Both the position numbers and the translations under genes were made by a program. The notes beneath the pieces were generated by a model that saw only the letters and a list, made by a program, of their open reading frames with translations, did no database searches and had not been told where the DNA came from. From the NCBI GenBank assembly GCA_037043015.1, contig CM073330.1:645263-709262 (forward strand): DNA of 64,000 nucleotides, in the 5' to 3' direction. The DNA is from Bryum argenteum. Taxonomy: Eukaryota > Streptophyta > Bryopsida > Bryales > Bryaceae. The first letter of the stretch is position 1. The number at the start of each line of letters is the position of its first letter. Shown piece by piece: positions 4,772 to 43,297 of this stretch.

Positions 4772-5168
4772 TCTTCGGGTATTTTTAGCCAAAAACTCAT
4801 TTTCAAAAAAAATGATATAGATGAAAATAAAGATAAGCTATTCAGATCTCAACCATACAAACTTGTAATAGACTTGTAGTAGATCATGTGGACCAAAACT
4901 TGACTCATGGGACCTCATAGATTGCGAGATCTTAACATATTAGTGCGCAAAACAGGCTACAAAATACCATCATTTCCACTTTGAAATAAAAATACTACCA
5001 ACATGAAATTTGCAATAAAAAAATCAGCAACTAGAAAGTTGTTCATCTTCATCTCAAAGACACTCTTAAACCAAAAAAACTCATTAAAAAAAAAAATCTG
5101 GACTCAAATAGTAGCCTTGTAGTAGTGAAAACTGCCAAAAATTTTACAAAGGAAAAATAGTCCAAAAC
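4772..5168 (-). repeat. TTAA-MITE copy A, part 1, split by the hAT
   Basis: Read on the minus strand, this matches the right half of the intact element at 39939-40911. Shared landmarks are CTAGTTTTGGA then ATTTTTCCTTTGTAAAA, CTTTCTAGTTG, GATGATGG, CTATGAGG/CTATAAGG and a GTCCACATGATC core. The other half resumes at 22225 after the hAT. The left TTAA terminus is missing where the foldback abuts. Confidence 0.75.
5161..5168. repeat. 8-bp hAT target-site duplication (TCCAAAAC), left
   Basis: Identical to 22225-22232. Eight bp is the diagnostic hAT duplication length. The word occurs once, as GTTTTGGA, in the unoccupied paralogue at 40506-40513. Confidence 0.92.
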
Positions 5169-5179
5169 CAGGGTTGTCA
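5169..5179 (+). repeat. hAT left terminal inverted repeat
   Basis: CAGGGTTGTCA followed by a CGACCGG-rich subterminal region. Matches the right end over 11 bp, after which only GC-rich similarity remains. Confidence 0.9.
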
Positions 5180-5189
5180 GGACGACCGG

Positions 5190-5590
5190 ACCAGGGGGCG
5201 ACCGGTCGACCATGGTCCGGTCGTCCTCAGCCCCTAGGACCTGTCGGTGACATAACGGGTTTTTTATAATTTACCTAGGGTAAATTACCGTCCGACAGGT
5301 GGCCGACCGCACCCCCGTCCAGCCGACCGCACCCCCGTCCGACCGTTTGACGGCCGACCGCACCCGTCCGACTCTCCGACCCGGCCGACCCGGTGCCGGG
5401 AACGACGTTCGAGGAGGCCGGTCGCGGTCGGCGAGGCGGTCGGCCGCCGACCGCCCCGAGACCGGCGAGGTCGGCCGCCGACCGGGTGACGACCGGCGAG
5501 TCGGCCGCCGACCATTGTCGCGACCGGGCGAGGTCGGCCGCCGACCATTGTCGCGACCGGCGAGGTCGGCCGGCTCAGCCTCGACCACTT
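5190..5590 (+). promoter_or_regulatory. GC-rich CGACCGG block 1, upstream of transposase
   Basis: Low-complexity run of CCGACCG, GGCCGCCGACC and GCGACCGG words in otherwise AT-rich DNA. It ends about 50 bp before a TATA box. Long apparent reading frames on both strands here are by-products of stop-poor GC repeats. Confidence 0.6.
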
Positions 5591-5639
5591 GAATTCAACA
5601 GCAAATTCAAATTTCAACGGTCAAATTCGGGGTTGAAGG

Positions 5640-5647
5640 TATATAAG
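5640..5647 (+). promoter_or_regulatory. TATA box of the transposase gene (TATATAAG)
   Basis: Followed by GGCCTCATTTCACTTCC, matching the TATA-GGCC-pyrimidine layout at the other three cargo promoters. Confidence 0.6.
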
Positions 5648-6040
5648 AGAAGAGACACAAGGCCTCATTTCACTTCCGAATTGTGAATGCGACCCTAAGT
5701 CTCCGAGTTGCATAACTTTATGTTATGTGTCCGTTGCTTAGTACGTATTGAGTTCGGAAGTGCGAGTTCGTTTTACGAACTCTTGACATTTTTTTCTACA
5801 TATCTATTACCACGTTTGATCATTTTGAGGTGTCCTACCTATCAAAATGGCCAACAAATCATCCTCACCTTGGTTCACCGATATTCATGAAGTACAAGGC
5901 CAACCTACCACGACCCCAACTGTCCAATGCAATCTCTCGTCATAAGGTTATGAGCAAGAGGCTAGAACGGCGGTTTCGGTCACCTTGGTTATGAAGGCAA
6001 GCGTGGGGTCCGCCTTAATACAGTTACGCTTTGTCCAAAA

Positions 6041-8757
6041 TTGAACACCCGAGTGATGGATTTATTTCGAAGATGTGACGGGCGGTTCCCTCCACATAAT
6101 GGAGAAATGAGCGGTTTTCATTCAATACCATCGTCATCAGAAGTTCGAATGTTGGCACGCCAAGGTCCTTTGGTGGAGACTCTTGCGTGGGATCTTCAAG
6201 CTACCCTTCGATTCCATCAACACCTTTAGTTGGATCAATCTCCGCCGTTCCTAACTTTGCGGGACAAGGTGAGGGTTGGTGGGCATATCAATAGGGCGAT
6301 GAAACAATCTGTGATTGAAGATGGTTTTGTTGAAGCGGATAGGCGGGAACTAGACATACTTTGGGCAAAGTTTTTCTATGAAGCAAACGTACCGTTTGCT
6401 GTAGCACGGAATCCGATCTTCAAGGAAGCCGTAATGAAAACTGCTTCTTTCCGAAAACCATATGTCCCACCTTCTTACCATGACATTCGGACAAAGTTGT
6501 TGGGACAAGTAAAAAGTGATCTAGAAGGAAAACTAGATAGTAGACTCAAGGAGAGCCTTCGGAAGTTCGGGGGAACTTTAGCCATGGATGGATGGTCATC
6601 TGTGAGTAGTCGCCCTCTTGTAAATGCAATGCTAGTGACTCTATTTGGAGAGCTTTTTCTTGGCGCCGTCGATACTACCGGCAAAAAGAAAAGACAAGAA
6701 TGTATATGGCCTCTATCATGGTCAAGTTCATCAAACAAGTTGGCCACGAACGCGTTGTCCAAGTCCGCACGGACAACGCTTCGTAATGATTAATGCCTCT
6801 CGATTAGTCGTTGAGGATTATCCCCATATATTCATTCGGGGATGCGCCACGCATGCGATGGATTTGTTGTTGGAAGATAGGGGAAAGGCGTCATGGGTGA
6901 AAGAAACTTTGGAAAAGGCCAAGGGCTTGGTCAAGTTCATCAAAAATCGTCAAATGCCTTTAGCCGTGTTTCGTAAACATGAGACAAGGTTTAGCCTATT
7001 GATGCTGGGAAAACAAGATTTGCGTGCAATTTTATAATGATAGATCGCTTATTGCGGGTTCGCGATTCTTTGGAGCAAATGTTGTAGATCCCCAGTGGTT
7101 GTCATATGCCTCGAAGAAGTCTCTATCGGCTAGAGATAAATTACCGGAGTCCCATAACGTAAGAAAAGTGGTTTTGGATGACGGTTTTTAGGCGTTGTAC
7201 AAACTTCCGAGATATGGTGGCCCTGGTGAGTGTATGCTCTTCGGGAATTGACGGCAAGGAGCCTTGTACGGGCAAGGCTTTGCATATCGTTCGTCGGCTC
7301 GAGAAGCATGTGCGACGCTATCTACGAGAACCATTTTCACTCCCGACGGATTTAGCGGACATTGCGAAGGAGAACTTCTACGCAAGGAAAAAGATGATGA
7401 CAACAGAGATCGCTTTCTGTCTTTGGTGCACTTTTGAATCCTTATTTACTACATGACAAAGAGTTAGCGATGATGATACCGAGGTCTGGCATGGGTGCGG
7501 GCGTGTTCTAAAAACTCTATGTGCTCCGGGCACTTATCATGATGTGGCGAATGAATATATGGCATTTCGAATGAGGAGTGCACCATTTCATGAGATGTTG
7601 GATCCCTTCGAGTCGAAATGTTTTCCCTTTGTTTGGTGGGAAATTGAAGGGTTTGTTGGAAAACTCCTTGCTCCGATTGCAAAGCGAATCCTAGCTCAAA
7701 CGGTGTCATCGTCGGCGTGCGAACGCAATTGGAGCAGTTACTCTTTCGTTCACGATAGGAAGCGGAATCGGTTGCTACCGGAAAGGGCGAGATGACTTGG
7801 TCTTTGTATACACCAACTCAAAGTTACTTGCAAACGCAAAGTTAACGGATGAGAAGAGGTGGTACTCGGAGAACTTGGATGTAGAGGATCGTGACGTACG
7901 TGACTCGAGGATGAAGAAACCCCCATAACTCAATTGGTGAAGGCTTTTCGGATCACGTTTTGGAGGACCTAGAAGATGACCTCAATAGCATCCCCGCTAT
8001 GAGCTTGCAAGATGCTTTGAACGTCCCAAACACCACGTATGACTTTGTTGACGATGAAGCTGAGGCGGATGATCCAGATGAATTGTTGCCCCTAGCTCAT
8101 TTACCACGGTTTCAAAAGGATACCGACAAAGTCACATGTGATAATACCCTCGCATGCGGACTAATTCCAAATACGGACGAGAACGTTGTTTCGAATGTGA
8201 AAATCGTGGGGATGATACTCATGGCCGCGTCTTTATTACGTTGGATCCAATAACGATAAATATAGCGTCCGCCATGGCTGCGGACGAACTCGCTTTGCTT
8301 TCTTTGTTGCCTCTCGGTCTCTATTTCAAAAATGTGATTTAGAGGTCCCTACAGTGATGGAGAAATCTTCCAAACGTTTGGTGTCACTTTCAAATCAAGT
8401 GCGACCTCGAACAGTACGTTCCAATTCCGGCGGAATCTCTAGTGACTCGGATGTACCGCTTCTTCAATTGGGATACAAGAACCTTCCAGGAGGTTCAGGG
8501 CTACGGAAGAAGGAGCCTCCAAGAGTTATGACGAAACGTAAAGCTCCAATGCTTCCGTTTCTTCATGATAAACCGAAGAATCCCCTTGATGCCATTGAGA
8601 ATGCGGGAAAATTCAAGATCATTCATTCGGGAAGTCACAAACGAAGAATCAAACAAGAAGTTAGTAGTGATTTCGAAGATGACCCTACGGGATCTAGCGG
8701 AGCTGAAGTAAAAGGAGACAGCGATTATGCAATTCCTACCGATGTGGATGAATAGAC
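6041..8757 (+). pseudogene. hAT transposase (DUF659-like plus hAT dimerisation domain), frameshifted
   Basis: Several overlapping frames together encode a hAT transposase. At 6320-6700: ELDILWAKFFYEANVPFAVA, then the DUF659-like GGTLAMDGWSSVSSRPL. In a shifted frame near 6747-6774: ERVVQVRTDNAS ending at TAA TGA. At 6828-6885: PHIFIRGCATHAMDLLLED. At about 7700-7775: SACERNWSSYSFVHDRKRNR, the C-terminal hAT dimerisation signature. An acidic tail (about 7960-8250) and a basic/acidic segment (8354-8755, ending in TAG) follow. At least three frame changes and several stops mean it cannot make full transposase. No clear BED finger remains at the N-terminus (5880-6230). It converges on the RING gene. 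Confidence 0.85.
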
Positions 8758-8788
8758 ATTAATTACATGCTCAGACACGTAGTAGAGG

Positions 8789-8813
8789 TCTAGCATACTT
8801 CGTGTATGCTAGA
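8789..8813. terminator. Perfect 10-bp hairpin between convergent cargo genes
   Basis: TCTAGCATAC - TTCGT - GTATGCTAGA, between the transposase stop (8757) and the RING gene 3' end (9008). The position suits RNA-end processing for either strand; the role is inferred. Confidence 0.4.
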
Positions 8814-9007
8814 GATAGTATAGCTCGTGAAACTTTATTACCAAACTGTTGATATGTTCGTACTTTATTTTGTCTGAAAATGTCGGTGAATAGTCAACAA
8901 AAGACTATTACATCATAAGAAATAAAAAACTTCATTATAAAAACCATGCATTACAAATCCAAAATGGTATGCGACCCTATTCCGGAATCGTAACCCTCCT
9001 TAACCGT

Positions 9008-12000
9008 CTACGCTTCTCTTTGGATTTCTATTACATCGCAATCGAATGCTCTTCTCGTATCAATTGTATTTGCTATACTACGAGTCCGGGGTCTTTGGCT
9101 TGGTCTAGCAATTCTACCGCCCTCGTCGTATTCTTGATCCACCGCAGCAATTTCTTCTGTTGTTGCCCGACATCCAATCGTCGCCGCTCTCATTGCCATC
9201 ATCCCTTTTCCGTTTCTTGGGTGGGTTAGCATTTTTGGAACGGAAGATTTTCATGGCCTCCTCGATTCGTCCCACCACATCCTTCACAAAGGAGTCCTCT
9301 CACGTGATAGACACCAATAACTCCGGCCGGGTCTTTGATCATTGTCGTCCAATGAGTAATGATGTTCTTTAATGCGCGACTCAAATTTCTCTACCGCCTC
9401 CCGAAAAGAAAAGATGTCGTCTTTGAAAGATTCCTCCTTCGTTGAAATCCGTAAGTGTGCGGCCTCTTCCAACTTGGCTAGGACTAAAGCCCTTCCAATC
9501 GGCCTATCATCGTACTTCTTGTACTCCTCTCCAAACTCAATGTCACTTGTTACCTCATGCCACAAACCATCTTTCCCTTCTCCACTCTCTTTGGAGGGAA
9601 TCGGAAGAAACGATTGTGTTCGATGACTCCAATGTCCTCCAAAGTTGCGGCAAAACATCTCTCGTTGCTCATTGTCTTCAATATCTCGCGCCCTAATCTC
9701 CACCTCGTAGTCACGTGTCATCCAAAGCAATGGATCTGTCTCGCCTACATCATGCATGAGGAGTGGTGTTTTGATGTTGAACTATCCCATTCAAGTGCTT
9801 TCCCCACTCACGAAAGTTGTGAAGTTTCTTTGGAAGTTGATCCAAAGGGAGATTCCATCGGTTGAACTCGTGCCAGGTGGCATGACATCGCGCATCCCCA
9901 TCACTTCGTAGAATCTCGTGCTAATTGGAGAACGACATATAGGACATGATGATTTTCCCGGGCGGCGCTTGCTATGCAAGTAACATGAAAGTTATGGCCA
10001 CATTGGCCTAGTGTGTACGCTCCTTACGGACCGAAATGATATCGGCACATGCCACATTTTTCCTTGATATTGTCGGTGGGGGTCGCATGTGTAAACGACA
10101 TTTCGATTTGATTCCACAAAATGCGATGAGAATGAGTTGTATGGCACCCATCCTTACGCTACTTCCAAACTCCAATCAATATCATCATCTTTTCCCATCC
10201 GATTGAAATTTGTTCGCTCCATCATCTCCTCGACATCACCCCAAATAGTGACCTTAGTAGGTTCGTGTTCTCGTAATCTTTCGTATTTTTAAATTCCTCC
10301 AATGATGTATTCACATGTTCACTCGAACCACATGATTTGGCGGCGATCTTCTTGATTATGTTGTGCCTTTGAAACCATGGCCTCCCTATCTTGAAGTCGG
10401 TGAACCCAAGCCAACCAAGGCAATATGTTCTCTTCGCGTGGTGTATAATCCACATTTCTCAATGCCATTCGTATGGATTCTAGTTCAGCTCGTGCCTCAT
10501 CTCTCTGCTTCATCATCGCTTCCAATTGCATTTCCAATGTTTCTTTAGGACATTGATTATGTAGGCAATCTTTTCCCTTCGAATGTGTATCATCCTCTAC
10601 ACGCACGCCCCTCCTTCCATTGTCCTCCGATTCCGTATCATCGTCCAAATCGATGATTTGTTTTCCTTTCTCCTGCGTACTGAACCGTGCTTCCTTCTCT
10701 TGAATGTCCTCTACTGCCTCAGTAGGCCCTGGCTCGCATGATGGAGTACCTTTCATCTCCGGGCCATCACTCTTATTATTCCCATCATTATTAGATGGGA
10801 TAAGATCACCTTCCCTTTCGATCCTTTCTCCAATTTTTGAAATTGGAGAATTATCTTTAGTTCTGGGGACATCTTCTACATCACCTTCTTCGGGAGGATT
10901 CAAAATGTTCATCGCTTGCTCCATGAGATTGCGGTGAGTACGGGGATTTTTCGCTCATATCCATTAAGTTTGAAATCATAAACCACCTTGTCAATCACGG
11001 TAATTGCTACGTTATACTTATCCTGAAGACTTATAAACTCCTCCGTATCCTTTATCCTTGCTTTCACATACGGGAGCCATGCCTCTGATATCTTCTCGTA
11101 GTCTATAGCTGCTTCTAGCATTCGAGGCGTCATTATGGCAAGAGTTTGAGCCAATTCTAAAAACCGTGGAACCATAGCAGCAACAACTTCAACCCCGACT
11201 TTCATCTCGGTCCCAGCTTGCAATATATGGGTTTTTTTGGTGTCTTCCCACTTCATCTTCGTCTCACCATCTGGAATGGTTTCGTCGTATATGACCTTCG
11301 CTACTTCGTCAATATAAGTGAGATACTCTCGCAGTTTCTTGTTGCTTGGTACTCCATATAATTCTTCGAAATTTGACCACCAATCCTTCTCCATCTGCGG
11401 AGTAATGGAATCTGGCATGGATGTTGTTTCCATTGGTTTACTTGGCCCTGCCTCATTCGATTTTGGATTATTATCGGTCAAATTTAGGCCATTGGGAATA
11501 ATAGGGTTATCTGGAATGAGAGGGGAGAGTACCTCTTCCACTACATTCTCTAAGTCCCCCACCTGATCTTGCACTGCATTCGCCTCTTCCAATGACTGCT
11601 CTCCAACTGCGTTTACATCCCGAAGCCTATCAAGCTGCATTGTTCGTTTGATAGACCATCCGTGGCAAGAGGAATGTCCGTATCCTTTGTAACGACATTC
11701 TCATCTTCCGTTGTATCCTCTTCAGCCTTTTTTTTTTTTTTTTTCCTCAAAACCTCCAAAATATGCTTTGTCAAGGCGATTGTGGATCAAAGCAATCCGG
11801 GATATGCTTCTCGCTTCCTTTCAATGCGAAGCGGAAATTGAGTATTAGTTTGGTACGTGCTCCAATTTATCTTCATTTGTAGTATCAACTCAAAGATATA
11901 CCATTGCCAACAATTGGTAACAAAAGTACCCTTTTGTTTTGGCACGATCCCGAACAAGGCCCGCCATACTTCCTCCGCACGGTGGATAAAGTGATCATCC

Positions 12001-12291
12001 TTGCATGTTGCGGGTTGCAACAAAAGTTCTTGGTATGAATCGCATGACATTCTTTAGGCCAAAGCTTGCCAATGTGAAACATCTTCACATATTTCTTGCA
12101 AATTTGAGCGGTCCAATACTCCGTCACCTCCGATTCCCAACGCGTTCCGCTTTAATGTCTTCATTCTCTAAAATCTCCCAATTAGGTCCATGAGTTGCAC
12201 CTTTTTGTTTATTCCTCTTCTTAGGCGCCTCTCTCGATATCATCGAATTCTCCACCTCCATACTCGTGTTCACGTTCTCAGTCGACGTCAT
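9008..12291 (-). pseudogene. RING-finger cargo gene of the hAT, frameshifted
   Basis: The start is placed at the ATG at 12291 (MTSTENVNTSMEVEN), about 175 bp downstream of its TATA. Regions in order: a basic, disordered N-terminus; a motif at 12115-12054 (W..A..CKKYVKMFHIGKLWP) shared with the gene at 17862; a second shared patch ending INWSTYQT near 11850; an acidic linker, then a helical region with EKDWWSNFEELYGV (11640-10909); a coiled-coil region rich in E/K/R (10924-10319); a RING-H2-like finger near 10055-9930, CGMC, then CGHNFHVTC, then CPICR; a charged C-terminus. RING fingers usually mark E3 ubiquitin ligases. Frame changes near 12124, 11640, 10915, 9950 and elsewhere, and a stop inside the finger, show decay. 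Convergent with the transposase. Confidence 0.65.
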
Positions 12292-12464
12292 CGTGCAAGT
12301 ATCACCGAAGAATCCACGGGACGAAGCAGCCGCAACAAATGTGAAAAAAAACCGACCCCCTTCTCCTCTCCAACTAGAATGCAGCAGGCGCCTTAGCAAC
12401 TGGAGGCAATTCGAATTGGGTTACCATGAGGAGAGGAAGTGGTGGAAAATGAAGCCGGACGGCC

Positions 12465-12472
12465 CTTTATAG
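12465..12472 (-). promoter_or_regulatory. TATA box of the RING gene (CTATAAAG)
   Basis: Minus-strand order: GC-rich block, CACTATAAAGGGCC, then CTTCATTTTCCACCACTTCC, as at the other cargo promoters. Confidence 0.6.
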
Positions 12473-12479
12473 TGCCCTC

Positions 12480-12760
12480 ATGCCGGACCGGCCGACCGAA
12501 CCGCCGACCGGGCCTAGCCGTCCGAAGCCCCGGAGCGGCCGACCGCTCGCTGGACCGGCCGTCCGGTCCCCCGGACCTGCCGACCGCCCCCCGGACCTGC
12601 CGACCGCCCCCCGGACCTGCCGACCGACCCCCGGACCGGCCGTGGGGCCATCGGGACCGTCCGATTGATCGCCGGACCGCCGGGCTCGGCCGACCGACCC
12701 GACGGCCGAACCTTCGCAGGCCGGGCCTGGCGGAGCGGCCGCCGGCCGCCCCTCTAAACC
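12480..12760 (-). promoter_or_regulatory. GC-rich CGACCGG block 2, upstream of RING gene
   Basis: CCGGACCTGCCGACCGCCCC-type repeats occur three times near 12570-12630. Reading frames here are low-complexity artefacts. Confidence 0.6.
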
Positions 12761-12813
12761 CTAACCCCAAAATTTGTTGTGCCCCTTTACAAACCCTAGG
12801 CATCAACCAATGA

Positions 12814-15100
12814 AGATCTATCTATCTCTAAAATATTAAATTTGGGCCCTCGAAGTGGGCATTAGGACTTTATATTGCAAGATCCACTCTATGACCCACT
12901 TTGTAAAGTAGAGCTAAAGTTAAGGCACACTTTAAGTCCAAGTGGGCTCAACTCCAAATGGGCCCAACTTCAAATGGCCTCTAGTATAAAGTAGCCGTAA
13001 AAAGTGCCAAAACCCCTCAAAACCAACTTATTATGAATTTCACTTCAATCGAAAATGATGAAATTTAGTAGATTCTCTTGTGCACTAATAAATTATCATC
13101 TCGCAATCTATGAGGCTCTATGAATCAAACTTTTATGCACATGACTTACAAGAGTATGTTTTTAGGGCATCCTCAATGGAGACTAAATAACCGCCCTTTG
13201 TACCAAATTCTATGTTTTGAGTGATTTTGAATTAAAAATACAATTACCAACGTAAGAAGCGCATGTAAAAAACGTGAGATAGATCTCAAGAAATAAGAAA
13301 TGTGGATAAAATTTTATTCCCAAATTGTGTAAACTTTCCCTACAAATTTAAAGTTGTTTTATTTAAATTTGTTTTAGGTTTTTTTAAAAATTAGACCTAG
13401 CCGCTTAAAAGTTTCTACTTAACCGTCTCCTTGCAACGAATTTCTTATACTAATAGGATAATTATAAACTGGTAATTCTTGTTCTTCAAGAAGATAGATA
13501 GATACAAACTCCAATTTTCATATCGAATATAACAATTGTATATAAATATAACCAAAGAACTCACGACAAAAAATAGTCTCTTCCATCTTACCCATGAGTT
13601 TATATATCCACCTAAAAGTCTTTCTATAGTCTTTTACTTTCCAATTTCTAAAAACAAATCTTATTAATAGATCAATTATAGAAATCTAACTCTTCATGTA
13701 TGTAAACCATTTATATTTAAAGTAGGATATGTATATTTACGTATATACTATGTATTAATAAATTAGAATATGTATATTTATGTATGTACTTTATGTTTCA
13801 TAGTATAATATGTATATGAAGGTATATATTATATGTAATATATATTATAATTGTATCGTATTATTGTTGAATTTATTATAAATATAATATTTCTGTATAC
13901 ATCAATACATGTATAGTATATATACTTATGTATGTACTTTTTGATTTATAGTTCTCGCACACAAAGTAGAATTGATTTGCTTTACCTCTAAATATGTATT
14001 TAAGTAGAACCACTATTTATATAGAACTTGTTTACCTCTAAATAAAATCTTAGCATTAAATCGCTATTTATGTAGAGTGACTTTACCTCTAAATATGTTT
14101 TTAGCAAAAACCGCTCTATCTTTACCGTATAGTGTATATATATTATTTATTTTATTATTTTCATTTTAGAGGGGACCCCAGTTAAGAACCAACATCCCGG
14201 ATGAGACTATAACATGTCCAATATATATAATAAAGGAATTAGCCTACAAAGGTTTGTAAAATAATGTATTGGATATGGAAAAATAAAAATATTAGCTAGG
14301 GGAAATTAATAAATCCTAGACCATGAACCTTATATCCTATGCTCAAGTGATTTCATCCACAATATACTCTAAATGAAAAAGCAATGGCTATTCAAATCAT
14401 TCTATTCCCTAATCAATCCATCAAAGTTTCTAATATAAGAATAATCAACTTCATTTAACATAAAATAGAAGTACTATACGTGTACAAGATCAAATATGAT
14501 TATAACTTTATAAGTTAATGCCGTTATTGCCATATGTTAAAAACTTATAGGGTGCGATATTTTTATTAATTTATTTGTAACGCTTTTTACTTCTCTTAAT
14601 TTATGATCACAATATAGAAAACAATAGAACAATATATGAAAACATCTCCTTGTGAGAATGGATCAATATTTGACAAAAGTTGGGACATTCAAGAAATGAA
14701 TGAAAATTCATGGCCTAAAAGCGTTCTCTTCATTCAAATTAAGAAAGAATATTTGTAAGAAATAAAATCAATGAGAACAAATCTAAAACATGGACTCTCG
14801 CTAATAATAAGAATTGGCCCCATAACCTTCGTTTTCCTTCTAGAAAAAATGGGCACCAACTCCCAACACCTTCACTAATGGGGGAATAGGCATGGGAGAT
14901 ATGTTGGCCTTGACTCCTCTTGCAAGGAGTCCCTTATTATAGAATTATTTGGAGCCTAGAGTATCTTTGTCATAAAACATTCTTGTTTCTGACAAAGAGA
15001 TCTTCCCGACATTCCCTTGTCAGAACATTCCCTACCCCGATTTAGACGCCACGTGTACGCGAGACGCTAAATATAGAAATGCAAATATGCAATGCAGGGA
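12814..15100. other. AT-rich non-coding interior of the hAT
   Basis: No credible gene. The part at about 12990-13165 matches the central part of the TTAA-MITE family (GATGAAATTT, TTATCATCTCGCAATCTATGAGG-like). The rest is A/T-rich with ATATGTATATTTA words near 13720-13830, resembling old nested insertions. Confidence 0.5.
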
Positions 15101-15164
15101 AGTGAGAGAAGTTGAGGAAACGGGAGTTACGCCTTTCCGGGAGAGGCAAGAAGAGGAGGGGGAG

Positions 15165-15350
15165 GGAGGTACGCCGGCCGACCGACGGATAGCCGACCGG
15201 TCGGTCGGCAGGCCGACCGCAGGCCGGCCGGCCGGCCGGTCTCCGGGCCGGTTCCCGGTCGCTCGGCCGGTCCGCGGTCGCCGGGCCGGTCGGTAGGCCG
15301 GTCATGCGGTCGGTCCCATCGGTCGGCCGGGCACAAGCGGCCCATTGACC
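15165..15350. promoter_or_regulatory. Orphan GC-rich CGACCGG block 3
   Basis: Same composition as the four promoter blocks (GGCCGACCG, GGCCGGCCGG) but with no recognisable gene on either side. A minus-strand TATATTTAG lies near 15068. It may be the promoter of a lost fifth gene. Confidence 0.45.
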
Positions 15351-15378
15351 GATCGTACATCGCCATCGCCCGCTTCGG

Positions 15379-15397
15379 TTTTTTTTTTTTTTTTTTA
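15379..15397 (+). repeat. Poly-T run
   Basis: About 18 T beside GC block 3; equivalent A/T runs lie beside block 4 and in cargo leaders. Confidence 0.6.
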
Positions 15398-15439
15398 TTC
15401 TTAGTTTCCATTGTGTTCCTGGAATCTTTCAAAATTACA

Positions 15440-17335
15440 TAGGATCCTTTTTAAATTTTAATCCCTCTCACATTTCTGTTATTAGATTCTCAGTGATTAT
15501 TACACAATGAAAAAAGGAATCCTATGTTGATTTGTGAAATGCTATATATTCTTTATTCACGGATATTGGTTTAGTGGTTTAGGGTTCCGGGTTTAGGGTT
15601 TAGGGTTTAGGGTTTAGGGTTTAGGTTTATGGTTTACTTAGAGATTTCATGATTGCGGTAGCTTTGTTATATGAATTTTCACTTCAATCTAGAAGTGATG
15701 AAATTTCGTAAATTCTCTTGTGTACTAACATATTATGATCTCGTAGTGTATGAGGTTATATGACTCAACTTTGGGGCACATGACCTACAACTATAACTCT
15801 ATTTCAATATTGCATGGTTGAGAATGTAAGTTGAGGATCCTCATTTTAATATAGGACCCTTATTTTGGAAATGCGACATTTGGTAAAAAATGGACATTAG
15901 GTTTGGGGAGTCTATAATCTTAGATGCTATGTTGAATGTTGAAAATACTATCAATATATTCCTTGCAACAAACTCGTGATTTATTCCATGTCAATAATAA
16001 TAACAATGCGATGGAGAAAAGTGGCATTCTAATTGATTAAAAATATAAATCAATACTACACCATGCATACACGAATCCCTTATTTTCATTCCACACACAA
16101 TTGAGTTTCCAAAGATTTCCAACACCAATCTTTATAAGTTGATGCGATATGTTAAAAACTTTTAGAGTTGGATATTTTCAAAAATTTATTTGTCTCCTTT
16201 TTACTTCTCTTTATTTGTGATTGCGAAATAGAAAACAATAGAGTCCTCTTTCTATTACCTTTGTAAGAGGTAAATAAATAATTATTCAAATAAATACAAT
16301 AAAAAAATGGTACTAATAAATATGGAAAAAGAATATGTGCAAATTAAGTACAATGATATGTACTACATTATAAATATACTCCTACCTTAGTTCAAGGGTG
16401 TCAAACAAAAATAGCCAATAATAGAATGAGTTGTTTAGGCATAATGTTTTTTGATTAAGCCTATTCTAATGTCTAATCGTGGTCAATGTAAGGCCCGACA
16501 CGGTAATACCAAAGTTATGAAACTAAATGGTCACACATGCTCTATAAGTCTATTACAATATTACATGTTTGAGAATGTAAATTGTGCATCTTCATTTCAA
16601 TATAGGACCCTTCATTTGATAATGCGTCATTTGGTTAAAAATAGGCACTACGTTTGGGAGTATATAATCTTAGATCCAATTGGCAAAAAAAAAAAAAACT
16701 TATTTTGTTCCTTTAAGTCATTTTGAAGTATTCTAATTATAATGTGAATAAGAATGAAATTAGAAAATACGAGTAATTATTATATACGGTATAAATAAAA
16801 CCACGTCTATTTACATAAAACCTCTTTGTTGACATGGAAGACACAAATTAGGATACGATGAGATTCTATCATCCCCGGTTCTAAATTTGGGACGCATGTA
16901 TGTATAATGAAATTTATATGTTATATGTTTTATACGTACACATATTTTCATGAACGCCAATAGCCTTCTATTATAGTTCATGAGAAAATATATTTTTAAG
17001 CTAATACATGTTCATTGTAAATTTGTAACCCTTAACCTCAAATGCCCAAGGGGGTGTAGACTCTAGAGCCTAGAAACACACGTTTTGCAAAGTGCAAGAG
17101 ATGAAAATAAAGGTTAGCAATCTAGATCCCAACCGTACAACATTGTAGAAGACTTGGTTTAGGTCATGTGGAGGAAATTTGGACTCCAAGACTAGAACTA
17201 TTAAAAAAGAATTCCTTTCTTTGTGGGCCATGGGAAAGCATGCCTCATGTTTGAAAAAATCCAAAAAACAAGACTTGGTTCTCCATCAGCGTTCATTTTC
17301 TTCTCCCTATGGAAACCCAACAGTTGTTTAATAAA
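15440..17335. other. AT-rich non-coding interior with old TTAA-MITE fragments
   Basis: 15655-15830 and about 17085-17200 resemble the interior of the 39939-40911 element (GATGAAATTTC, TATGATCTCG, ACATGACCTAC; CTAGATCCCAACCGTACAAC). Nothing coding is seen. Confidence 0.5.
15592..15627 (+). repeat. Interstitial telomere-like run, about five TTTAGGG units
   Basis: Plant telomere heptamer in a short internal run with a variant copy just upstream; far too short to be a telomere. Confidence 0.8.
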
Positions 17336-17371
<36 letters not shown>

Positions 17372-17380
17372 AAAAAAAAC
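17336..17380 (+). repeat. Poly-A run abutting GC block 4
   Basis: About 40 A with one G, followed directly by AGCCCCGCCGACCGG. Confidence 0.8.
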
Positions 17381-17391
17381 AAACAACAAAA

Positions 17392-17712
17392 GCCCCGCCG
17401 ACCGGACGGGGGGGACGGCCGATCGGACGGACGGCGGCCACCGCGATCGACGGACGGCGGCCGATCGCCCTCGCGACCCGTCGGACGGCGGGTCGCGTCG
17501 GATCCGTCGCCGCGGCGGACGGATCGGTCGGCCGCGATGGCCCGGCCGGATCCGGCGGCCGCGACGGATCTGTCGGCCGTCGGGCGGCTGCGATCGGTCG
17601 CCAATGCGGCCATCGGATTGGCCGACCGATCTGGCCGACCGATGGCGGAATCGACCGCGGCCGACGGAGATCGGACGGCCGGAGGAACGGGCGAATGCCG
17701 ACCGCCGCGATC
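17392..17712 (+). promoter_or_regulatory. GC-rich CGACCGG block 4, upstream of Tyr/Gly-rich gene
   Basis: Repeats of GCCGATCGGACGG, CGACGGATC and GGCCGACCGATC. Contains GATCGGACGG at 17421-17430 and 17669-17678, a word also found at the 5' flanks of two host genes (36045-36073, 57878-57916). Confidence 0.6.
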
Positions 17713-17714
17713 GG

Positions 17715-17722
17715 TATAAATA
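17715..17722 (+). promoter_or_regulatory. TATA box of the Tyr/Gly-rich gene (TATAAATA)
   Basis: Followed by GCCGACCGGGGCTCATTTC and TTCTCACT, the layout shared by all four cargo genes. Confidence 0.65.
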
Positions 17723-17861
17723 GCCGACCGGGGCTCATTTCTTCTCACTCTGGTGTGCGCCTGGTATTTGTGGTTTTCCATGTCGATTGCGCTCTCTGAG
17801 TCCCCTCTTGATAATCGACGCCATTTTTTTTTTTTTTTTTTTTTTCTTGTGGCTGAACAAT

Positions 17862-19500
17862 ATGCCGAGGGAACGACGTACTAGTGCACCCAAGGGCAAG
17901 GCCCCGGAGATGGATTGGGAAGCAACTGACGATCCAAATTGTGTTGCCGAAGATGGATGGGAAGATGAACCGGCGAGAATTTGGAATTGCACCATGTGCA
18001 AGCGATATGTGAAGATGAAACACCTCATGAAGTTATGGCCAAGAAATCAAGCGATTATATCAGGGCCACGACGCGAAGGACTAGCCAGCAATTGCACAAG
18101 TCAACATTTCACACTTCGTTATCATGAAGTGACCATTGCCGTTGGAGTACGGAATACTAGGCCGGAAATCATGTTATATTCCAACATGGCTATGGTTTGG
18201 GCAGAAATCGTTCTACATAAGAACGTGAATTGGAGCACCGTAACAGGTTTGAATGTTGCCGGGTGGATCGGAGCCATGATTTCATACCAACTAGTTGGCT
18301 TGGAGCCAGTGATTGTATGCCCCTTTGGTCAAATCGGACATATACGGAGATGTCGGAAGTTCAAGATGAAGAAAGTACACCTCCAAGGAGATATGGAGGT
18401 CAGACACGAATTTCTCAAGATACACCTCCGAGGGGATACGAGGGTCAAACACAACATCAACAAGACACACCTCCAGGGGATACGAATGTCAATCAACATC
18501 AACAACATACACTCCGAGGGGATATGGGGGTCACACAGCAGATAATTATAATCGCAGCAATAACAGGGGTATGGTACCAATCTCTTTTGGCATAGGAAGT
18601 GGTGGGTATTATCCCGGTAGCAATATATACGGTCCAGGAACCACTACTCCTGAGACATATAGGCCGAGCATCCAAGGGATACGTACCAATCAGGAGGCCA
18701 ACACGATACAAGTCCGAATCTTTGGAGGAAGATATATGCCAACATATCCTCGGGATACATACGAGTCAGGAGGCCGATACGGTGGAATGAGTGCTCCGGA
18801 GAGCTATACGCCAACATATCCTCGGGAATTTAACGATGTTCCCGGCCAATATGGTAGAGGACCGAGTAGTCCAGAGTACCATATCCCAATACATCCAAGG
18901 GACACATACGAGTCTCGAGGCCGGTATGGGAGAGGACCTAACATTCGAGAAAGGTACCCCACAACGTATCCCTCTTTGGATCATACGATGCTCACAACCA
19001 ATACGGTAGAAGACCCGAGGTTCCGGATAGCTTTAGACCAACGTATTCAAGAGATACGCATGATCATCACGGCGAGTACGGTAGAGCTATTACCAATCCC
19101 GAGTACCGTACTCCAAGTCAAGCAAGAGATGAATACGAGCCCAGTTGGAATTACCGGAACAAGGATCATGAAGAGCATATCACTCAAGATATCCATATCC
19201 GGTATGGCCAACATGCATATGGGAGTAACAACACTCCCCCGCCACCATTCGAACTCGTGAAGAAGAAGATGCGAGTTTGAAAGACAACTACGAGAGGCAA
19301 CAATTCAAAGTCAAGCGGAGTACATCCGCAAGCTTGAAAATGATCGTATTTTGACGAGCGGCGCTTGTATGATGCTTATTCGCGAGGGCGGTACTCGGAC
19401 CAAGCGGGGCCAAGTGGAACACAATATGATAAGGACTAGGATGCAAAGTAGTTATACATTTACATATAGGCATGTTGTAATGTCTTGTACGTACATGTAG
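17862..19500 (+). pseudogene. Tyr/Gly/Pro-rich cargo protein with shared N-terminal motif
   Basis: The ATG at 17862 follows a poly-T leader and gives a basic start (MPRERRTSAPKGKAPEM). Residues 41-60 hold W..C..CKRYVKMKHLMKLWP; a second shared patch (NVNWSTVTG) follows near residue 125. Both match the RING gene, so the two genes are paralogous at the N-terminus. The frame then shifts into a long low-complexity region of Tyr/Gly/Pro/Arg repeats (about 18380-19130), units like YGRGPSSPEY and HPRDTYESRG. A coiled-coil end follows in another frame near 19270-19350 (AEYIRKLENDR). Two or more frame shifts indicate decay or unrecognised introns. No known domain is recognised; function unknown. Possible roles, by inference only: DNA or RNA binding with a phase-separating tail. 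It converges on the kinase-like gene. Confidence 0.6.
18660..19130 (+). repeat. Diverged tandem repeats of about 81 bp in coding sequence
   Basis: Repeating cores: CCAACATATCCTCGGGA, TACGAGTC, GG(C/A)CG(A/G)TA and a GGTAGAGGACC-like core. The period is a multiple of 3, fitting a repeated protein segment. Confidence 0.6.
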
Positions 19501-20430
19501 TATTTGGATGAGAACTCTATTCTCCATATGGTAGAGGTCATTTTTAAGACCTTCTTAACCATGTTTTGTTGGTAAACGGACATCATATGAATGATATACG
19601 GAATGTAGAACCATAACCTATATTACACATTTATTTGAGTAAATATGTTATGATTCCATTTATTAACCAGATTTGTTTAAAACTTTATTTGGGATTTGCT
19701 TCGGGAGGCGGTGTCTCCACGGTGCAAAGGGGAGTTGGCGATTGTTACCAACAAAATTTTGGACATATTTTTTCCCTATATGTAATCAAATGTAGTAAAT
19801 TCATGCAAAATTTGGGAGGCTCATTCCTCTTGATTGACATTCTTACAAGTTATTTTCTAAAAGCAGGTCCGAACAATACTATAGTAAAACATGCACGTCA
19901 TTACGTATATTTCGTATTATAAAGAACTTAGAGTGGGGTATGTGAGTGTAGGAGTTTGTGATTTTTGAGGTAACTTAGTTCTAACAGTTTTCCATAATCT
20001 AGAATTTTGACAAATTCTGAAATATGTAATTCAGAATTTACTAATACATTTTGAGCTTGTGTTGGTAATTTCTGGAGGCTGCCACTGTAAAATTGGTAAA
20101 TATTATGACTTAAATAATATTGGAATTTCAGTAGTGATTCGCTTATAAACATATGAGAAGAAAAATAGAAGATAAATCGCTAAATTTGAATTACCCAACC
20201 AACACTTAAAAATTGAATCAATAGGTTTTTCTGGGCTTTACCCTAAAGGCCTCATCCAAATGGTGCAAAGGGGCAAAATATTATAATAAACATAAGTATA
20301 CTTGGTGGGCCAAAATTTGAAAGGCATGCAATGCATTTGAAACAAAGAGTATTGTTGCACTGAAAATAGAACAAACATACTAATTCATAAACTATAATAA
20401 AACCGATATGCGTAAAACAAATTCTACGTT
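19501..20430. other. Spacer between convergent cargo genes
   Basis: AT-rich, no gene seen. It contains the presumed 3' ends of both neighbours. Confidence 0.5.
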
Positions 20431-20488
20431 CTCCTATTCGTAATTCGTCCGAAAATGCTCACGAGGCGTAGGCCAATGAAACATATCG

Positions 20489-21919
20489 CTAAACCGTGAG
20501 ATGATATGGGACAACCCTCCGGTAGCCGTCACGACTCTCGTTGCATACTCTATCCATGTAAAGATGGAAAGCTTGTGCAAGGTCTTCATTGGAGAATACC
20601 GAAGTATTTCGGTTTCCACGTTGCAAGCTCTCGTACGCCGTAGACATGGTCATCCCATTAATTCTTTGTGCTATACGGGCCGTGGCAAACTCCTCCGAAG
20701 CAATCGAGTATTTTGGAATAACCTGTAAATCCTCACCCGCTTTGTACAAGAACGCCACTCGTGGATCTACCCAATAACGTTTTTCGCAGGTCTCCACCAT
20801 CTCCTCACGTTTTGTAAATGTATAAAGGGATTGCATTGGTTCCTGAACCGTTGTGGAGAACCCCCAATCGCATACTCCGATATACACTCGTGATTCATCG
20901 GCGGGGAAGTGGAGAAGGATATTATCTGGAGATATATCATTATGGAGGTGGTGGCTCTTGTGGACCTCGTTCATGATATGCAACAACGCCCAAGCAAGCT
21001 CTGTCCGTTTTTTACGGAATCGAATCAGTTGATGCGCCCAAATAACTTCGTCGTCAGGGTAATTCCCAAAGTTCAAATGTACAAAGACATCGTCACCATA
21101 ATCCATATCGCGATTCAGCATCTCTCGAATAGTCCCGCCATTCCACCAAAACGCATAGCCTTGATTCTTCACTGGATGAATGGCCACAAAGCGGATCACA
21201 CCCGGGTGTCCAATCCTTATCGCCATAGACTCATTCATATGCTCCAATTTTGCCAACTCCGGTCGTGTCAAGTGGTGAATGGAAGTTTTTGCAAAGAAAT
21301 TCCCAAAATGGTTCAATGCCCGCAACACCTGAGCGAACTTTGACAATAGTACCATACCGTCCCTTCAACCTCGTGTGTCATCAACTCGTATGATTTGAGC
21401 TGTATCCGGAATGGTAACCAAATGAGTCAATCGCATGGTTTGAGTTTGTCGTCCCTCTAGCGATTGCCACCATGTTCCAGAGCCTCGACGGTGTGAATTC
21501 TTTGAAAATGCCCTCATTTGGGCAGAAAAACAATCAGCCCTATTCACCACGTCAACGAAATCCTCATCACCCTCCCGAAATATCCTCCCATATTTGGCTA
21601 TTACAACCTTGGGATTCCAGAGTGCATCCTTCACCCTATTCTCCAAAAACGACATGAACCCTCGTTTCTCTGTCTCTGCTACCCACTTCGGATGCTGAAG
21701 CACTTCTATCATGAGATCTCTCATTTCAATCTTGAACTTCTGGATGCCCTCCTCCTGATATCTCACATATTTGCTTTCCAATGCTCGAAGATCATTGGCC
21801 TCATAGAATTTGACGGTAAATTCTATCAAGAATACCTTACAAGCGTCGCTCGGGACCTCATGAGGCTCAAACTTCTCAAAGAAGTTCGCAACACCCTTCT
21901 TCTTCTTCTCCTTCGGCAT
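20489..21919 (-). pseudogene. Protein kinase-like cargo gene of the hAT, one in-frame stop
   Basis: A single minus-strand frame runs from ATG 21919 (MPKEKKKKGVANFFEKFEP) to the stop at 20489, 477 codons including the terminal stop, interrupted only by TGA at 21367-21365 (codon 185). Residues 1-180 are charged and helical, with no recognised domain. From about 185 a kinase fold is readable: a candidate VAIK-type Lys (FFAKTS, residue 211), a candidate helix-C Glu (near 221), GHPGVIRF, the catalytic loop HNDISPDN (20944-20921; Asp 328 and Asn 333 present, usual HRD Arg replaced by Asn), DWG in place of DFG (20869-20861, Asp 351 present), and a possible APE-region equivalent YWVDPRV. Catalytic residues are intact, so the ancestor was probably active. 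The TGA could be CGA or TGG mutated. Preserved frame elsewhere suggests recent inactivation or an untested readthrough. Substrate unknown. Confidence 0.75.
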
Positions 21920-22124
21920 CTTGATCCCAAAAAAGGAAATATGTAAAGTGTGAAGTTTTTAAAAAAACTTTTCAAAAAAAAAGAGCAAAAACTCCCCCCG
22001 TATAACAAGTGACTTCCTTCCTCCAAAAGACAAGGAGCCAGTGGACAGGAATCACAAAGAATTCCCAGCCAGAGAAACTCCGCATCCTCTCTTCGTGAGA
22101 ATGGAGGAAAGAAGTGAGAAAAAA

Positions 22125-22205
22125 GGAGGCCGGTCGGCCTTTTATAGCGGCCGACGGCCCGCCCTGGATCGGACGGCCGATCGGACTAGGTTTACCCCGA
22201 ATGTC
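22125..22205 (-). promoter_or_regulatory. GC-rich block 5 of the kinase-like gene
   Basis: Contains GGCCGACGGCCCGCC and GATCGGACGG (22167-22176), directly inside the right TIR. Shorter than the other blocks. Confidence 0.55.
22140..22146 (-). promoter_or_regulatory. TATA box of the kinase-like gene (TATAAAA)
   Basis: Minus strand: CGCTATAAAAGGCCGACC, then CCTCCTTTTTTCTCACTTC, about 220 bp before the ATG. Confidence 0.6.
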
Positions 22206-22213
22206 GACCGATT

Positions 22214-22224
22214 TGACAACCCTG
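22214..22224 (-). repeat. hAT right terminal inverted repeat
   Basis: TGACAACCCTG, the reverse complement of the left end. Confidence 0.9.
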
Positions 22225-22232
22225 TCCAAAAC
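22225..22232. repeat. 8-bp hAT target-site duplication (TCCAAAAC), right
   Basis: Identical to 5161-5168. Confidence 0.92.
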
Positions 22233-39642: not shown

Positions 39643-41100
39643 AGAGAAGAGCTCACAAGAGCCTCTATCTTCTCACCCCCGAGCGTATATTTCCAAAGTT
39701 CCTTCCTCATGAACTAGAAGTCTATATCTAGTCTTTTACTTTCCTATCTCCTAAATACTTCTTATCAATAGATCAACTAGAGTAGTTTTACTCTTTATGT
39801 CTTTCCAATTTCTATTTAGAGTGGTCTAAGTCTAGTTGGAATCTTATCCATGAATCGATTGATTTAACTCTTTTCATTCTTTTACTATTTCAATGTCGAG
39901 TAGTCTAACTTCAATGCACCTCATCATAAGTTGTTTAACCCTTAAACGCCCACGATGTTGAAAAACAACATTTTGGATGTACATCAAAAACTTTGAAGAG
40001 CCATATCTTCTTCATCCAAGGTCCGTTTTGGATGAAATCACTTGGGTTAGGTTCCAAATCAAGTCTAGTTTGTGTTGTAAAATTTTCAAGCCCATACAAT
40101 AAAGTATTAATTAATGGAATGCACTTTAGTGAAAACAACTCTTGTTTTTGGGTTTCCAAGCATGGGGCATGTATTACCATTGCAAGCCAATTATGTGAAA
40201 TTAAAAATAGTTTTTCATGATTTTTTTTTTCATGGTCATGATTTTAAGGTGATTCTTAACAACTTTGTAGTGAGAAGTTTTTTGATCCAAATGATTTTGC
40301 TATTGGATTTGCAATGATGTTTTGTCAAGAGAAAAAGTGAGAAAATGGATGATATTTTAGGAGCTATATCTCCTTCATCCACCGTTGGATTTCAACTTAA
40401 TATTCTGGAATGGCCTCCAATTAGAGTCTTGTCTAAGTGGTAGAAACCTTAACAAGATCGAAGATGTTTTGAAGATAAGGCATGAAATTGAATGCAAAGG
40501 GTCTAGTTTTGGAGTATTTTTCCTTTGTAAAATGTTCGGTAGTTTTTACCATTGCATGGCTTTTATTTGAGCCAAGAATTTTTTTTGATGAATTTTTGTT
40601 GGGTAAATGACTTATTAAGATGAAGGTGAACATCTTTCTAGTTGGTGATTTTTTCATTGCAATAGGTATATTGGTAGCATTTCCACCTCAAAGTGAAAAT
40701 GATGAAAATTTGCAATTTGTTTTTGATATTAATATGTTATGATCTCCCGATCTATAAGGCCTCATGACTCGAATTTTGGTCCACATGATCTTCAATAAGT
40801 CTATTACAAGTTTGTACGGTTGAGATCTTAATAGCTTCTCTTGATTTTCATCTATGACGATTTCTATGAAAATGTGCTTTTCTGCTAAAAATAGGCTCGG
40901 GCGTTTAGGGGTTAACTCCTATACACATGGTCTCAATCTGGAGTGGTCTAACTTCAATGCACCTCATCGTGAGTTGTTTAACTCTTGTGCACATGGTCTC
41001 AATCTGGAGTAATTTGACTCCTATGCACTAAATATAGAGTTGTCTAACTATACTGCACATATTATCCACTTCGAGTTGTCTCCATTCATCCTCAACTAGG
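39643..41100 (-). repeat. LTR body with tandem units, interrupted by a TTAA MITE
   Basis: Continues the inverted LTR. Units about 60 bp long (GTCTAACTTCAATGCACCTC, GTTGTTTAACTC, ACATGGTCTCAATCTGGAG) recur near 39900, 40945 and 41000. Confidence 0.5.
39939..40911 (+). mobile_element. Intact TTAA-flanked MITE-like element (copy B), 973 bp
   Basis: Ends CCCTTAAACGCCC and GGGCGTTTAGGGG, with TTAA at 39935-39938 and 40912-40915. The adjacent tandem unit at 40978-40981 has a single TTAA in the same context (GTTGTTTAACTC), showing the unoccupied site. TTAA duplication with CCC/GGG ends is piggyBac-like. This copy is also the unoccupied paralogue for the hAT site (40506-40513). Confidence 0.85.
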
Positions 41101-42081: not shown

Positions 42082-43297
42082 CGTTCCTTATCTTGTTTCT
42101 CTACATTTTGGATGAAGGGAGAAACGTTGAAGAGCCATAACTTTTTTATCTAGAGTCCTTTTTTGACAAAATCACCTGGATTGAGTTTCAAATCAAGTCT
42201 ATTATGTGTAATAAAAATTGCACAATCATATAATGAAGTAAGAATGAATGGCATGCATGTTAGTGAAGGCAGCTCTTGGTTTCAGAGTTTCAAACATGGA
42301 CCATGTTTTATCATTTCAAGCCAATTATGTGAAATTGAAAATAATTTTCAATGATTTTTCCAAATGATTGTGATGTTAAGATGAAACCTAAAATCTTTCT
42401 AGTTGGAAGATTTTCAATCCAAATACTTCCGATATGGGAATTGCAATAATCTTTGTGCTTACAATGAAAAAAGTGAAATAATGGATGATTTTTGAGGGGC
42501 TATATCTCCTTCATCCACCGTTGGAATTTTGTTTTTGTTTTTTGGATTGGTTTGCACTTAGAGTCTAGTTTAAGGTGTAGAAAACTTAACTGAGGCAAGG
42601 ATGTTTGTAAATGAGGTGTAGATTTGACTACAAAGAGTCTAGATTTGGACTCTTTTTTGTTTGTAATCTTGAAATTTTTCACCATTGTAAGGCTATTATT
42701 TGAGCAGATGATTATCTTCCAAATGGTAAACATCCAACGGTCAATTTTTTAACCCCTAAAGATCCACAATGTTTTGGGAGCTTGAAATCCCAACACTGAC
42801 CACTATGTACTAATGCGGGTACGTCCAACATTTTTGGAAATTTTTTATAACTTCAACCGTAGGATCTTGAAGTAGACTACCATAGGTAGTAGTGTGAAAA
42901 ATTTCAACCGTTGGATCATCATTGGATGTGAGATCATAACATTTGAAGTTGAGTGTAAATTTTTTTTGGCCTTGACGATAAAAGCCGAATCGGTGGCCGT
43001 GGTCGTTTAGGGGTTAAATGGTAAACATCCAACGGTCAAGATCATAACACCCGAAAGTTAATCTTCCAAGTTTTTATGGGCATTGTGAAGATTGGTTTTG
43101 AATTTTATGGAGGCTGCCCTTGGAGATTTGGTAAATTTGACTTGGGTAACTGTAGAACTTAAGTGATTTAGTATTGAACATGTCTTCAAAAATAGAATAA
43201 AAATCATAATAAATACTTCTTTAAGCTGCCCCATTTTGGCATACAATCACAATTTTTAGGTTCCAAGCTCCACAAAAACACCAAGAAGCTTTAGGGG
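42082..43297 (+). mobile_element. TTAA MITE copy C, diverged, with nested copy D
   Basis: TTAA at 42078-42081 and 43298-43301. The interior matches copy B (TTGAAGAGCCATAAC, GGCATGCATGTTAGTGAAGG, ATCTCCTTCATCCACCGTTG, GTCTAGATTTGGA). The left terminus is mutated. The 261-bp element at 42753-43013 lies inside. Confidence 0.65.
42753..43013 (+). mobile_element. TTAA MITE copy D, 261 bp, nested
   Basis: Ends CCCCTAAAGATCC and GTCGTTTAGGGG between TTAA 42749-42752 and 43014-43017. The word ATGGTAAACATCCAACGG with TCAA flanks it on both sides (42723-42744, 43018-43039). Confidence 0.75.

What the first reader, a model, noticed from the sequence alone, without database searches (positions are those of the whole stretch)
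5161..22232. A 17-kb cargo-carrying hAT transposon with exact ends
Perfect 8-bp duplication TCCAAAAC, matching 11-bp termini CAGGGTTGTCA, and a hAT transposase inside. Between the ends lie three further protein genes (RING, Tyr/Gly-rich, kinase-like) in two convergent pairs. hATs normally carry one gene and span a few kb; a hAT mobilising a kinase and a RING gene is, to my knowledge, not a described class.
Basis: partly seen in the sequence, partly recalled or inferred. Interest (0 to 1): 0.95.

Follow-up and report, generated by a model that had tools for sequence, protein, structure and literature searches.

The report
An 18-kb four-gene hAT transposon
The 17-kb block is a real jumping gene of the hAT type that carries, besides its transposase, genes for a RING protein, a tyrosine/glycine-rich protein and a protein kinase, and a second, well-diverged family in the same genome has the same four genes in the same order, so they look like parts of the transposon rather than random passengers.

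Summary
Confirmed. Window 5169-22224 (17,056 bp) has exact 11-bp inverted ends and a perfect 8-bp duplication, TCCAAAAC; an uninterrupted relative of the target with one TCCAAAAC lies at 40239-40770 of the window. It is one of a family ("E"): 57 of 71 exact left ends pair with a right end, 20 of them 17-21 kb apart; 14 of 19 such copies examined have perfect, different duplications. The ten copies read in full all have the same four genes, order and orientation. A second family ("K", ends CAGGGATGTCA, two copies read in full) has the same layout at 33-62% protein identity. Between families all four genes show dN/dS 0.26-0.45 at similar dS: they descended together under selection. The kinase's catalytic residues are invariant in 36 aligned sequences. 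CCGACC-rich islands precede each gene and include both ends. Best reading: an old, self-contained four-gene hAT lineage, probably of mosses (species not identified). What the RING, Tyr/Gly-rich and kinase proteins do is inferred only. New variant of a known kind.

The parts
5161..5168 (.). target-site duplication, left copy (TCCAAAAC)
   Evidence: present once in the related empty site at 40239-40770
22225..22232 (.). target-site duplication, right copy (TCCAAAAC)
5169..22224 (+). whole hAT element, 17,056 bp (E family)
   Evidence: ends and TSD; the ten E copies read in full are 93-97% identical pairwise over aligned bases
5169..5179 (+). terminal inverted repeat, left
   Evidence: the 21-bp left end has 71 exact copies in the genome, 0 for the reversed control
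22214..22224 (-). terminal inverted repeat, right
   Evidence: the 18-bp right end has 87 exact copies, 0 for the reversed control
5180..5650 (+). GC-rich CCGACC/GGTCGG island with TATATAAG at 5640: likely promoter of the transposase and left subterminal array (limits approximate)
   Evidence: sequence; GC profile and TATA scan
5847..8755 (+). hAT transposase gene (N-terminal CxxC..H..C finger, DUF659, Dimer_Tnp_hAT); frames broken in this copy
   Evidence: relatives E3, K2, K3
9005..12291 (-). gene 2: ~1,080-aa protein with an N-terminal Cys/His domain shared with gene 3 and a RING-H2 finger; broken here, one open frame in E9
12400..12770 (-). GC-rich island with TATAAAGGG: likely promoter of gene 2 (limits approximate)
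15160..15370 (.). smaller GC-rich island in the AT-rich centre (limits approximate)
   Evidence: 3 of 52 hexamers (E9) and 2 of 35 (K2) lie in the centre
17390..17735 (+). GC-rich island with TATAAATAG at 17715: likely promoter of gene 3 (limits approximate)
17862..19439 (+). gene 3: Tyr/Gly/Pro-rich protein with the N-terminal domain of gene 2; broken here, 430-aa open frame in K2
20434..21919 (-). gene 4: protein kinase with a helical N-terminal domain; frames broken here, open in E9 and K2
22125..22213 (-). GC-rich island with TATAAAAGG: likely promoter of gene 4 and right subterminal array (shorter here than in E9; limits approximate)
40239..40770 (-). related empty site: uninterrupted repeat copy matching both flanks joined, with one TCCAAAAC
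   Evidence: 77% over 535 bp, no gap at the junction

Best explanation
SHOWN: a hAT element of about 18 kb that moves as one unit and carries four genes in two convergent pairs (transposase> <RING gene, Tyr/Gly-rich gene> <kinase), with CCGACC-rich islands upstream of each gene, two of which include the ends. The layout is shared by two diverged families, and all four genes were under purifying selection between them. INFERRED: the transposase (zinc finger plus DDE core) binds the arrays and 11-bp ends, excises the element and inserts it with an 8-bp stagger. Because the same kind of array stands before every gene and at both ends, one element-encoded DNA-binding protein (the transposase, or the domain shared by genes 2 and 3) probably switches the four genes on together. 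Gene 2 is then a RING ubiquitin ligase and gene 4 an active kinase that change a host factor or the transposase so that transposition or expression escapes host control, perhaps DNA-methylation silencing. The confidence below is for the four-gene self-contained element; for the silencing step it is about 0.3.
Against: Within E the position-3 excess is not significant for gene 2 (49/50/67, p 0.16) or gene 3 (20/13/23, p 0.24). 14 of 56 E-type kinase hits have no exact right end within 4 kb, and 40 of 78 K-type hits have no exact K end within 4 kb (38 do): broken or varied ends are likely but not checked. TATA boxes were found in 4 of 4 upstream regions of the window copy but in only 3 of 4 in E9 and 2 of 4 in K2. 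dS of 1.1-1.3 is partly saturated. No expression, binding, ligase or kinase activity was tested. Pfam scores of the intact kinases are below its cut-off (23.9 and 20.8 against 31.7). The methylation hint is weak: C>T share of CpG differences is 61-79% in genes and centre but 18-47% in islands, and islands align poorly. The gene 2 model is unusable (pLDDT 35). None of the twelve copies read in full has all four genes open.
Confidence: 0.85

Rival explanations
1. Passenger capture: host genes were picked up by a hAT and are carried without serving the element (as in transduplication).
For: Short derivatives that lack some or all of the genes still moved (S1-S4, perfect TSDs).
Against: The same three genes in the same order in two families with 33-62% protein identity, dN/dS well below 1 for each gene, and no closer host kinase seen: the hits fall into the E and K identity classes, and those are the same places apart from three, one of which lies beside a K end and two of which were not classified. 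Only part of the candidates was scored (134 of 983, 76 of 951). Non-autonomous derivatives are normal for DNA transposons (general knowledge).
Confidence: 0.07
2. Two or more separate elements lying side by side, each pair with its own ends.
For: Two convergent gene pairs separated by a ~5-kb AT-rich centre with repeats.
Against: The outer ends carry the TSD in 14 of 19 copies; three empty sites lack the whole block; the same layout in the twelve copies read in full.
Confidence: 0.01
3. The extra genes act for the host (for example a beneficial kinase carried like Starship cargo), and selection on them is host-level.
For: Purifying selection between families would look the same.
Against: Dozens of copies in the genome, many with stops; arrays shared with the transposon ends; constraint visible in variants shared between copies but not in private ones, as expected for selection through transposition.
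Confidence: 0.06
4. Same four-gene hAT, but the extra proteins regulate the transposase itself (phosphorylation, turnover, timing in the cell cycle) rather than counter silencing.
For: Kinase and RING are generic post-translational regulators (general knowledge); similar upstream islands. CpG decay in gene bodies suggests that these copies were methylated anyway.
Against: None direct; islands with CpG o/e 1.0-1.5 against 0.7-0.97 elsewhere in E9 lean weakly to an anti-silencing role.
Confidence: 0.4

Closest known systems
Ac/Ds and other plant hAT elements
   Same: 8-bp duplications (recalled), 11-bp inverted ends, subterminal repeats, hAT transposase (PMC3260210: only the search listing with the start of its abstract was seen: 4.6-kb Ac, Ds sharing 11-bp TIRs and some subterminal repeats).
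   Different: Ac is 4.6 kb with one gene (recalled); here ~18 kb and four genes.
TET+ fungal DNA transposons, including hAT7 and IS3EU with alpha-kinase (PMC12730594)
   Same: DNA transposons, some of them hAT, that carry accessory enzyme genes, in some families with conserved order; TET+ IS3EU has an alpha-kinase gene in the orientation opposite to the transposase.
   Different: Fungi; 7-bp duplications in hAT7; a TET/JBP gene passed between superfamilies. Here 8-bp duplications and a kinase of the ordinary protein-kinase fold, a RING protein and a Tyr/Gly-rich protein co-inherited with one transposase lineage.
VANDAL (MuDR) elements with a protein that regulates their own silencing
   Same: An accessory protein acting sequence-specifically on its own element is the model for the array-rich islands (one sentence in the introduction of PMC12730594; details recalled).
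   Different: Other superfamily; no homology tested; function here not shown.
Lanisha
   Same: A DNA transposon lineage that I recalled in connection with moss genomes (recalled).
   Different: Described as similar to EnSpm, in a group with 2-5 bp duplications; this element is a hAT with 8 bp.

Membership tests
hAT superfamily | 8-bp target-site duplication | tested here: met
   14 of 19 E copies (window included) and 5 of 8 K copies perfect; three empty sites with one copy
hAT superfamily | short inverted ends of the CAGGG type (consensus recalled) | tested here: met
   CAGGGTTGTCA (E), CAGGGATGTCA (K)
hAT superfamily | transposase with DUF659-type core, hAT C-terminal dimerisation domain and D/D/E motifs | tested here: met
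   K2: DUF659 4e-32, Dimer_Tnp_hAT 2.2e-11; E3 has MDGWSS, CTDN, CERNWS (reading of these as the DDE residues recalled). K2 itself has N for the first D
transduplicating (Pack-type) hAT | recent gene fragments close to a host parent, no own transposase | tested here: not met
   transposase present; kinase and gene 2 in single open frames in E9; beyond the E copies the best kinase hits are the K class at 55-64%
protein kinase (eukaryotic protein kinase fold) | Gly loop, beta-3 Lys, alpha-C Glu, catalytic Asp/Asn, DFG-type Asp | tested here: met
RING-H2 finger protein | eight Cys/His ligands in RING spacing | tested here: met
   zf-RING_2 9.5e-08 in E9, above cut-off; seven ligands invariant in seven gene 2 proteins, the eighth in all but the frameshifted K2 piece
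ubiquitin ligase | E3 activity | not testable with these tools
   -
VANC-like anti-silencing factor | binding to own-element motifs with loss of methylation | not testable with these tools
   only motif arrays and a weak CpG pattern
Starship / Polinton / Teratorn type giant elements | tyrosine recombinase, polymerase B or herpesvirus genes | not tested
   no dedicated search; the Pfam scans of this element's proteins listed none

The most novel reading that the evidence does not exclude
An old, moss-wide lineage of multigene hAT transposons that encodes its own control module: arrays of CCGACC-type motifs at the ends and before every gene form one regulon driven by element-encoded DNA-binding proteins (the domain shared by genes 2 and 3), and a RING ligase plus a kinase disable or re-time host silencing. 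A virus-like gene programme carried by a simple cut-and-paste transposon.
Probability: 0.3. Interest if true: 0.9.

Novelty: new variant of a known kind. Interest (0 to 1): 0.78.

Why it matters
hAT elements are thought of as one-gene, few-kb transposons. A lineage that has kept a kinase, a RING protein and a third protein next to its transposase through deep divergence, in many copies, says that these proteins matter for being a transposon. It offers a concrete system in which to ask how plant DNA transposons act on host signalling, protein turnover and silencing, and it warns that some 'kinase' and 'RING' gene models in such genomes may be transposon genes.

Tried and rejected
Virus origin or virus relatives of the kinase (the only gene tried): viral-contig scans with the protein and with alignment A1 gave no confirmed relative, nor did the bacterial and archaeal genome contigs. 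Against that, one kinase hit (P0018, 51%) is filed under a Bacilli MAG on a 2.9-kb contig; I take it as contamination, untested. A protein in Scenedesmus annotated with RING and hAT domains (P0091) looked like support for a RING-transposase link, but its N-terminal RING part reads like a merged host gene model; not used. Structure of gene 2: predicted from seven sequences, pLDDT 35, unusable, so the shared N-terminal domain of genes 2 and 3 has no fold assigned; Pfam found nothing convincing there. The kinase's N-terminal ~160 residues were barely tested by the fold search. A further kinase family like Ceratodon P0032 in this genome could not be looked for: the tool did not complete. Proteins P0034/P0076 (kinase, transposase) and P0054/P0062 (gene 2, transposase) have the same longest-contig lengths and sources (27,639 ena; 8,444 jgi), which suggests the same linkage in other organisms, but the contigs could not be fetched and this is not counted as evidence. 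Paper searches showed no description of such an element; the library lacks most subscription papers, no paper in it holds Ceratodon purpureus with sex chromosome, transposon and cut-and-paste, and Repbase was not searchable. Recalled 'Lanisha' as a candidate: EnSpm-like, rejected.

Full report
What was checked. The element is 17,056 bp.

It is a mobile unit. The two flanks joined with one target copy match an uninterrupted repeat in the same window (40239-40770, minus strand, 77% over 535 bp), with a single TCCAAAAC and no gap at the junction. Two sister copies (E4, E3) sit in K-family sequence for which copy K2 gives the empty site (95.4% over 565 bp and 87.1% over 551 bp), again with one copy of the 8-bp target. 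Of the 14 insertions whose flanks were joined, these three gave such a site among the loci held; the search did not reach the rest of the genome.

It is a family. In the 258.8-Mb genome (25 contigs) the 11-bp end occurs 313 times against 49 for the reversed control; the 18-bp right end 87 times and the 21-bp left end 71 times, both 0 in control. 57 of 71 left ends have a converging right end within 100 kb: 20 pairs span 17-21 kb, 13 span 6.5-9 kb, 3 are under 2.5 kb, 4 are of other sizes up to 15.4 kb, and 17 span 22-91 kb, probably nested or false pairs. Target duplications were read for 19 copies of 17-21 kb (window and E1-E8, ten more; E7 has a variant left end and is not among the 20 pairs; two of the 20 pairs were not read): 14 perfect and all different, one 7/8, four with at most 3/8.

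The copies hold the same genes. Ten E copies were read in full (window, E1-E9) and each has transposase (+), gene 2 (-), gene 3 (+), kinase (-) in that order. Among the 20 pairs, 16 contain a scored kinase hit; two of the other four (E1, E3) were read and have it; two remain unresolved. Of 56 E-type kinase hits (66% identity or more), 42 have the exact right end within 4 kb in the right direction and 14 do not. One search lists 136 rows: 56 E-type, 78 K-type, and two second pieces of split hits that I dropped; it scored 134 of 983 candidates, so counts are lower bounds.

A second family. The 78 K-type kinase hits are 55-64% identical. The end beside them, CAGGGATGTCAATCCGGACG, has 101 exact copies, 0 in control; 38 of the 78 have it within 4 kb in the right direction (100 of the 101 ends were listed). 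K2 (16,938 bp, C1:16963399) has a perfect duplication GACACCAC, the same four genes in the same layout, and open frames for transposase (951 aa, from within the N-terminal part), gene 3 (430 aa) and kinase (508 aa); gene 2 is in two overlapping frames. K3 (16,865 bp) has the same layout, duplication 6/8; six further K pairs gave four perfect and two 7/8. Identity to E proteins is 60-62% (transposase main part) and 33-58% (other parts). Of 48 K transposase hits (7 second pieces dropped), 24 have a scored kinase in the expected place and orientation within 6-30 kb, none in any other arrangement.

Selection. E versus K dN/dS: transposase 0.26 and 0.44 (two parts), gene 2 0.45 and 0.27 (two parts), gene 3 0.29, kinase 0.29, with dS 1.09-1.32, partly saturated. 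Similar dS suggests that the four genes have travelled together since the split. Within E, variants shared between copies favour codon position 3 in the transposase (p 0.009; C-terminal part p 0.048) and kinase (p 0.006); gene 2 (p 0.16) and gene 3 (p 0.24) do not reach significance; the p values are not corrected for several tests; a non-coding control shows no significant bias (80/61/61, p 0.17), and private variants are flat everywhere. So copies decay neutrally after insertion, while the lineages that spread were constrained.

Control regions. In E9, 49 of 52 CCGACC/GGTCGG hexamers, and in K2 33 of 35, lie in four 1-kb bins that hold the upstream regions of the four genes; two of these are also the ends of the element. 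Five of the six pairs of upstream regions of E9 match each other; the transposase and gene 3 regions do not, and such GC-rich repeats match easily. TATA boxes: 4 of 4 upstream regions in the window copy, 3 of 4 in E9 (none found for gene 3), 2 of 4 in K2. CpG-to-TpG decay is marked in genes and centre (C>T or G>A at 1.5-3.2% of CpG cells against 0.4-0.6% of other cells, the latter counting A and T too) but makes up a smaller share of CpG differences in islands; island alignment is poor, so this is only a hint.

Host and spread. The closest named relative of the kinase is from the moss Ceratodon purpureus (P0002, 78%); a second cluster named from Ceratodon, P0032 (45%), stands for 126 sequences. 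The window also has GH116 and GH17 gene pieces. The host is therefore probably a moss; the species was not identified. 52 kinase, 5 gene 2 and 45 transposase relatives were found, mostly on unnamed records. Kinase queries found none confirmed in viral or prokaryotic contigs, though one hit bears the name of a Bacilli MAG (P0018).

Judgement. An old four-gene hAT lineage is well supported; its biochemical programme is a hypothesis. DNA transposons with accessory enzyme genes are known, including fungal hAT7 and IS3EU (PMC12730594), so this is a new variant of a known kind, not a new kind.

Noticed in passing
L025, L026, L027 (C1:8007085, 21922407, 31421148): Three 7.2-7.4 kb elements with E-type ends and perfect duplications but no match to any of the four genes: large non-autonomous relatives. 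Genome-wide 13 pairs span 6.5-9 kb; three of these were read (L026, L027 and the deletion derivative L028), L025 has a variant end and is not among them.
   Followed up: partly
genome contig C1: K-family transposase hits are concentrated on the 44-Mb contig C1 (36 of 48, against 17% of the genome), perhaps a low-recombining or sex chromosome.
   Followed up: no
window 40239-40770 and 42371-42709: Further copies of the repeat into which the element inserted; identity of the repeat not known.
   Followed up: partly
window ~15591: Short telomere-like (TTTAGGG)4 run in the centre of the element; 0-4 units in the other E copies.
   Followed up: partly
L059 4813-7665 (-): K2's otherwise open transposase has N where relatives have the first catalytic D, so an open frame does not mean an active copy.
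   Followed up: yes
L015/L016 and L013/L014: E copies nested inside K-family copies, so E was active after those K insertions.
   Followed up: yes
window 29346-30446 (-) and 50155-52461 (+): Host gene pieces: glycosyl hydrolase family 116 and family 17.
   Followed up: no
P0091 (Scenedesmus): Protein annotated RNF32 with RING and hAT domains in one chain; probably a merged gene model.
   Followed up: partly
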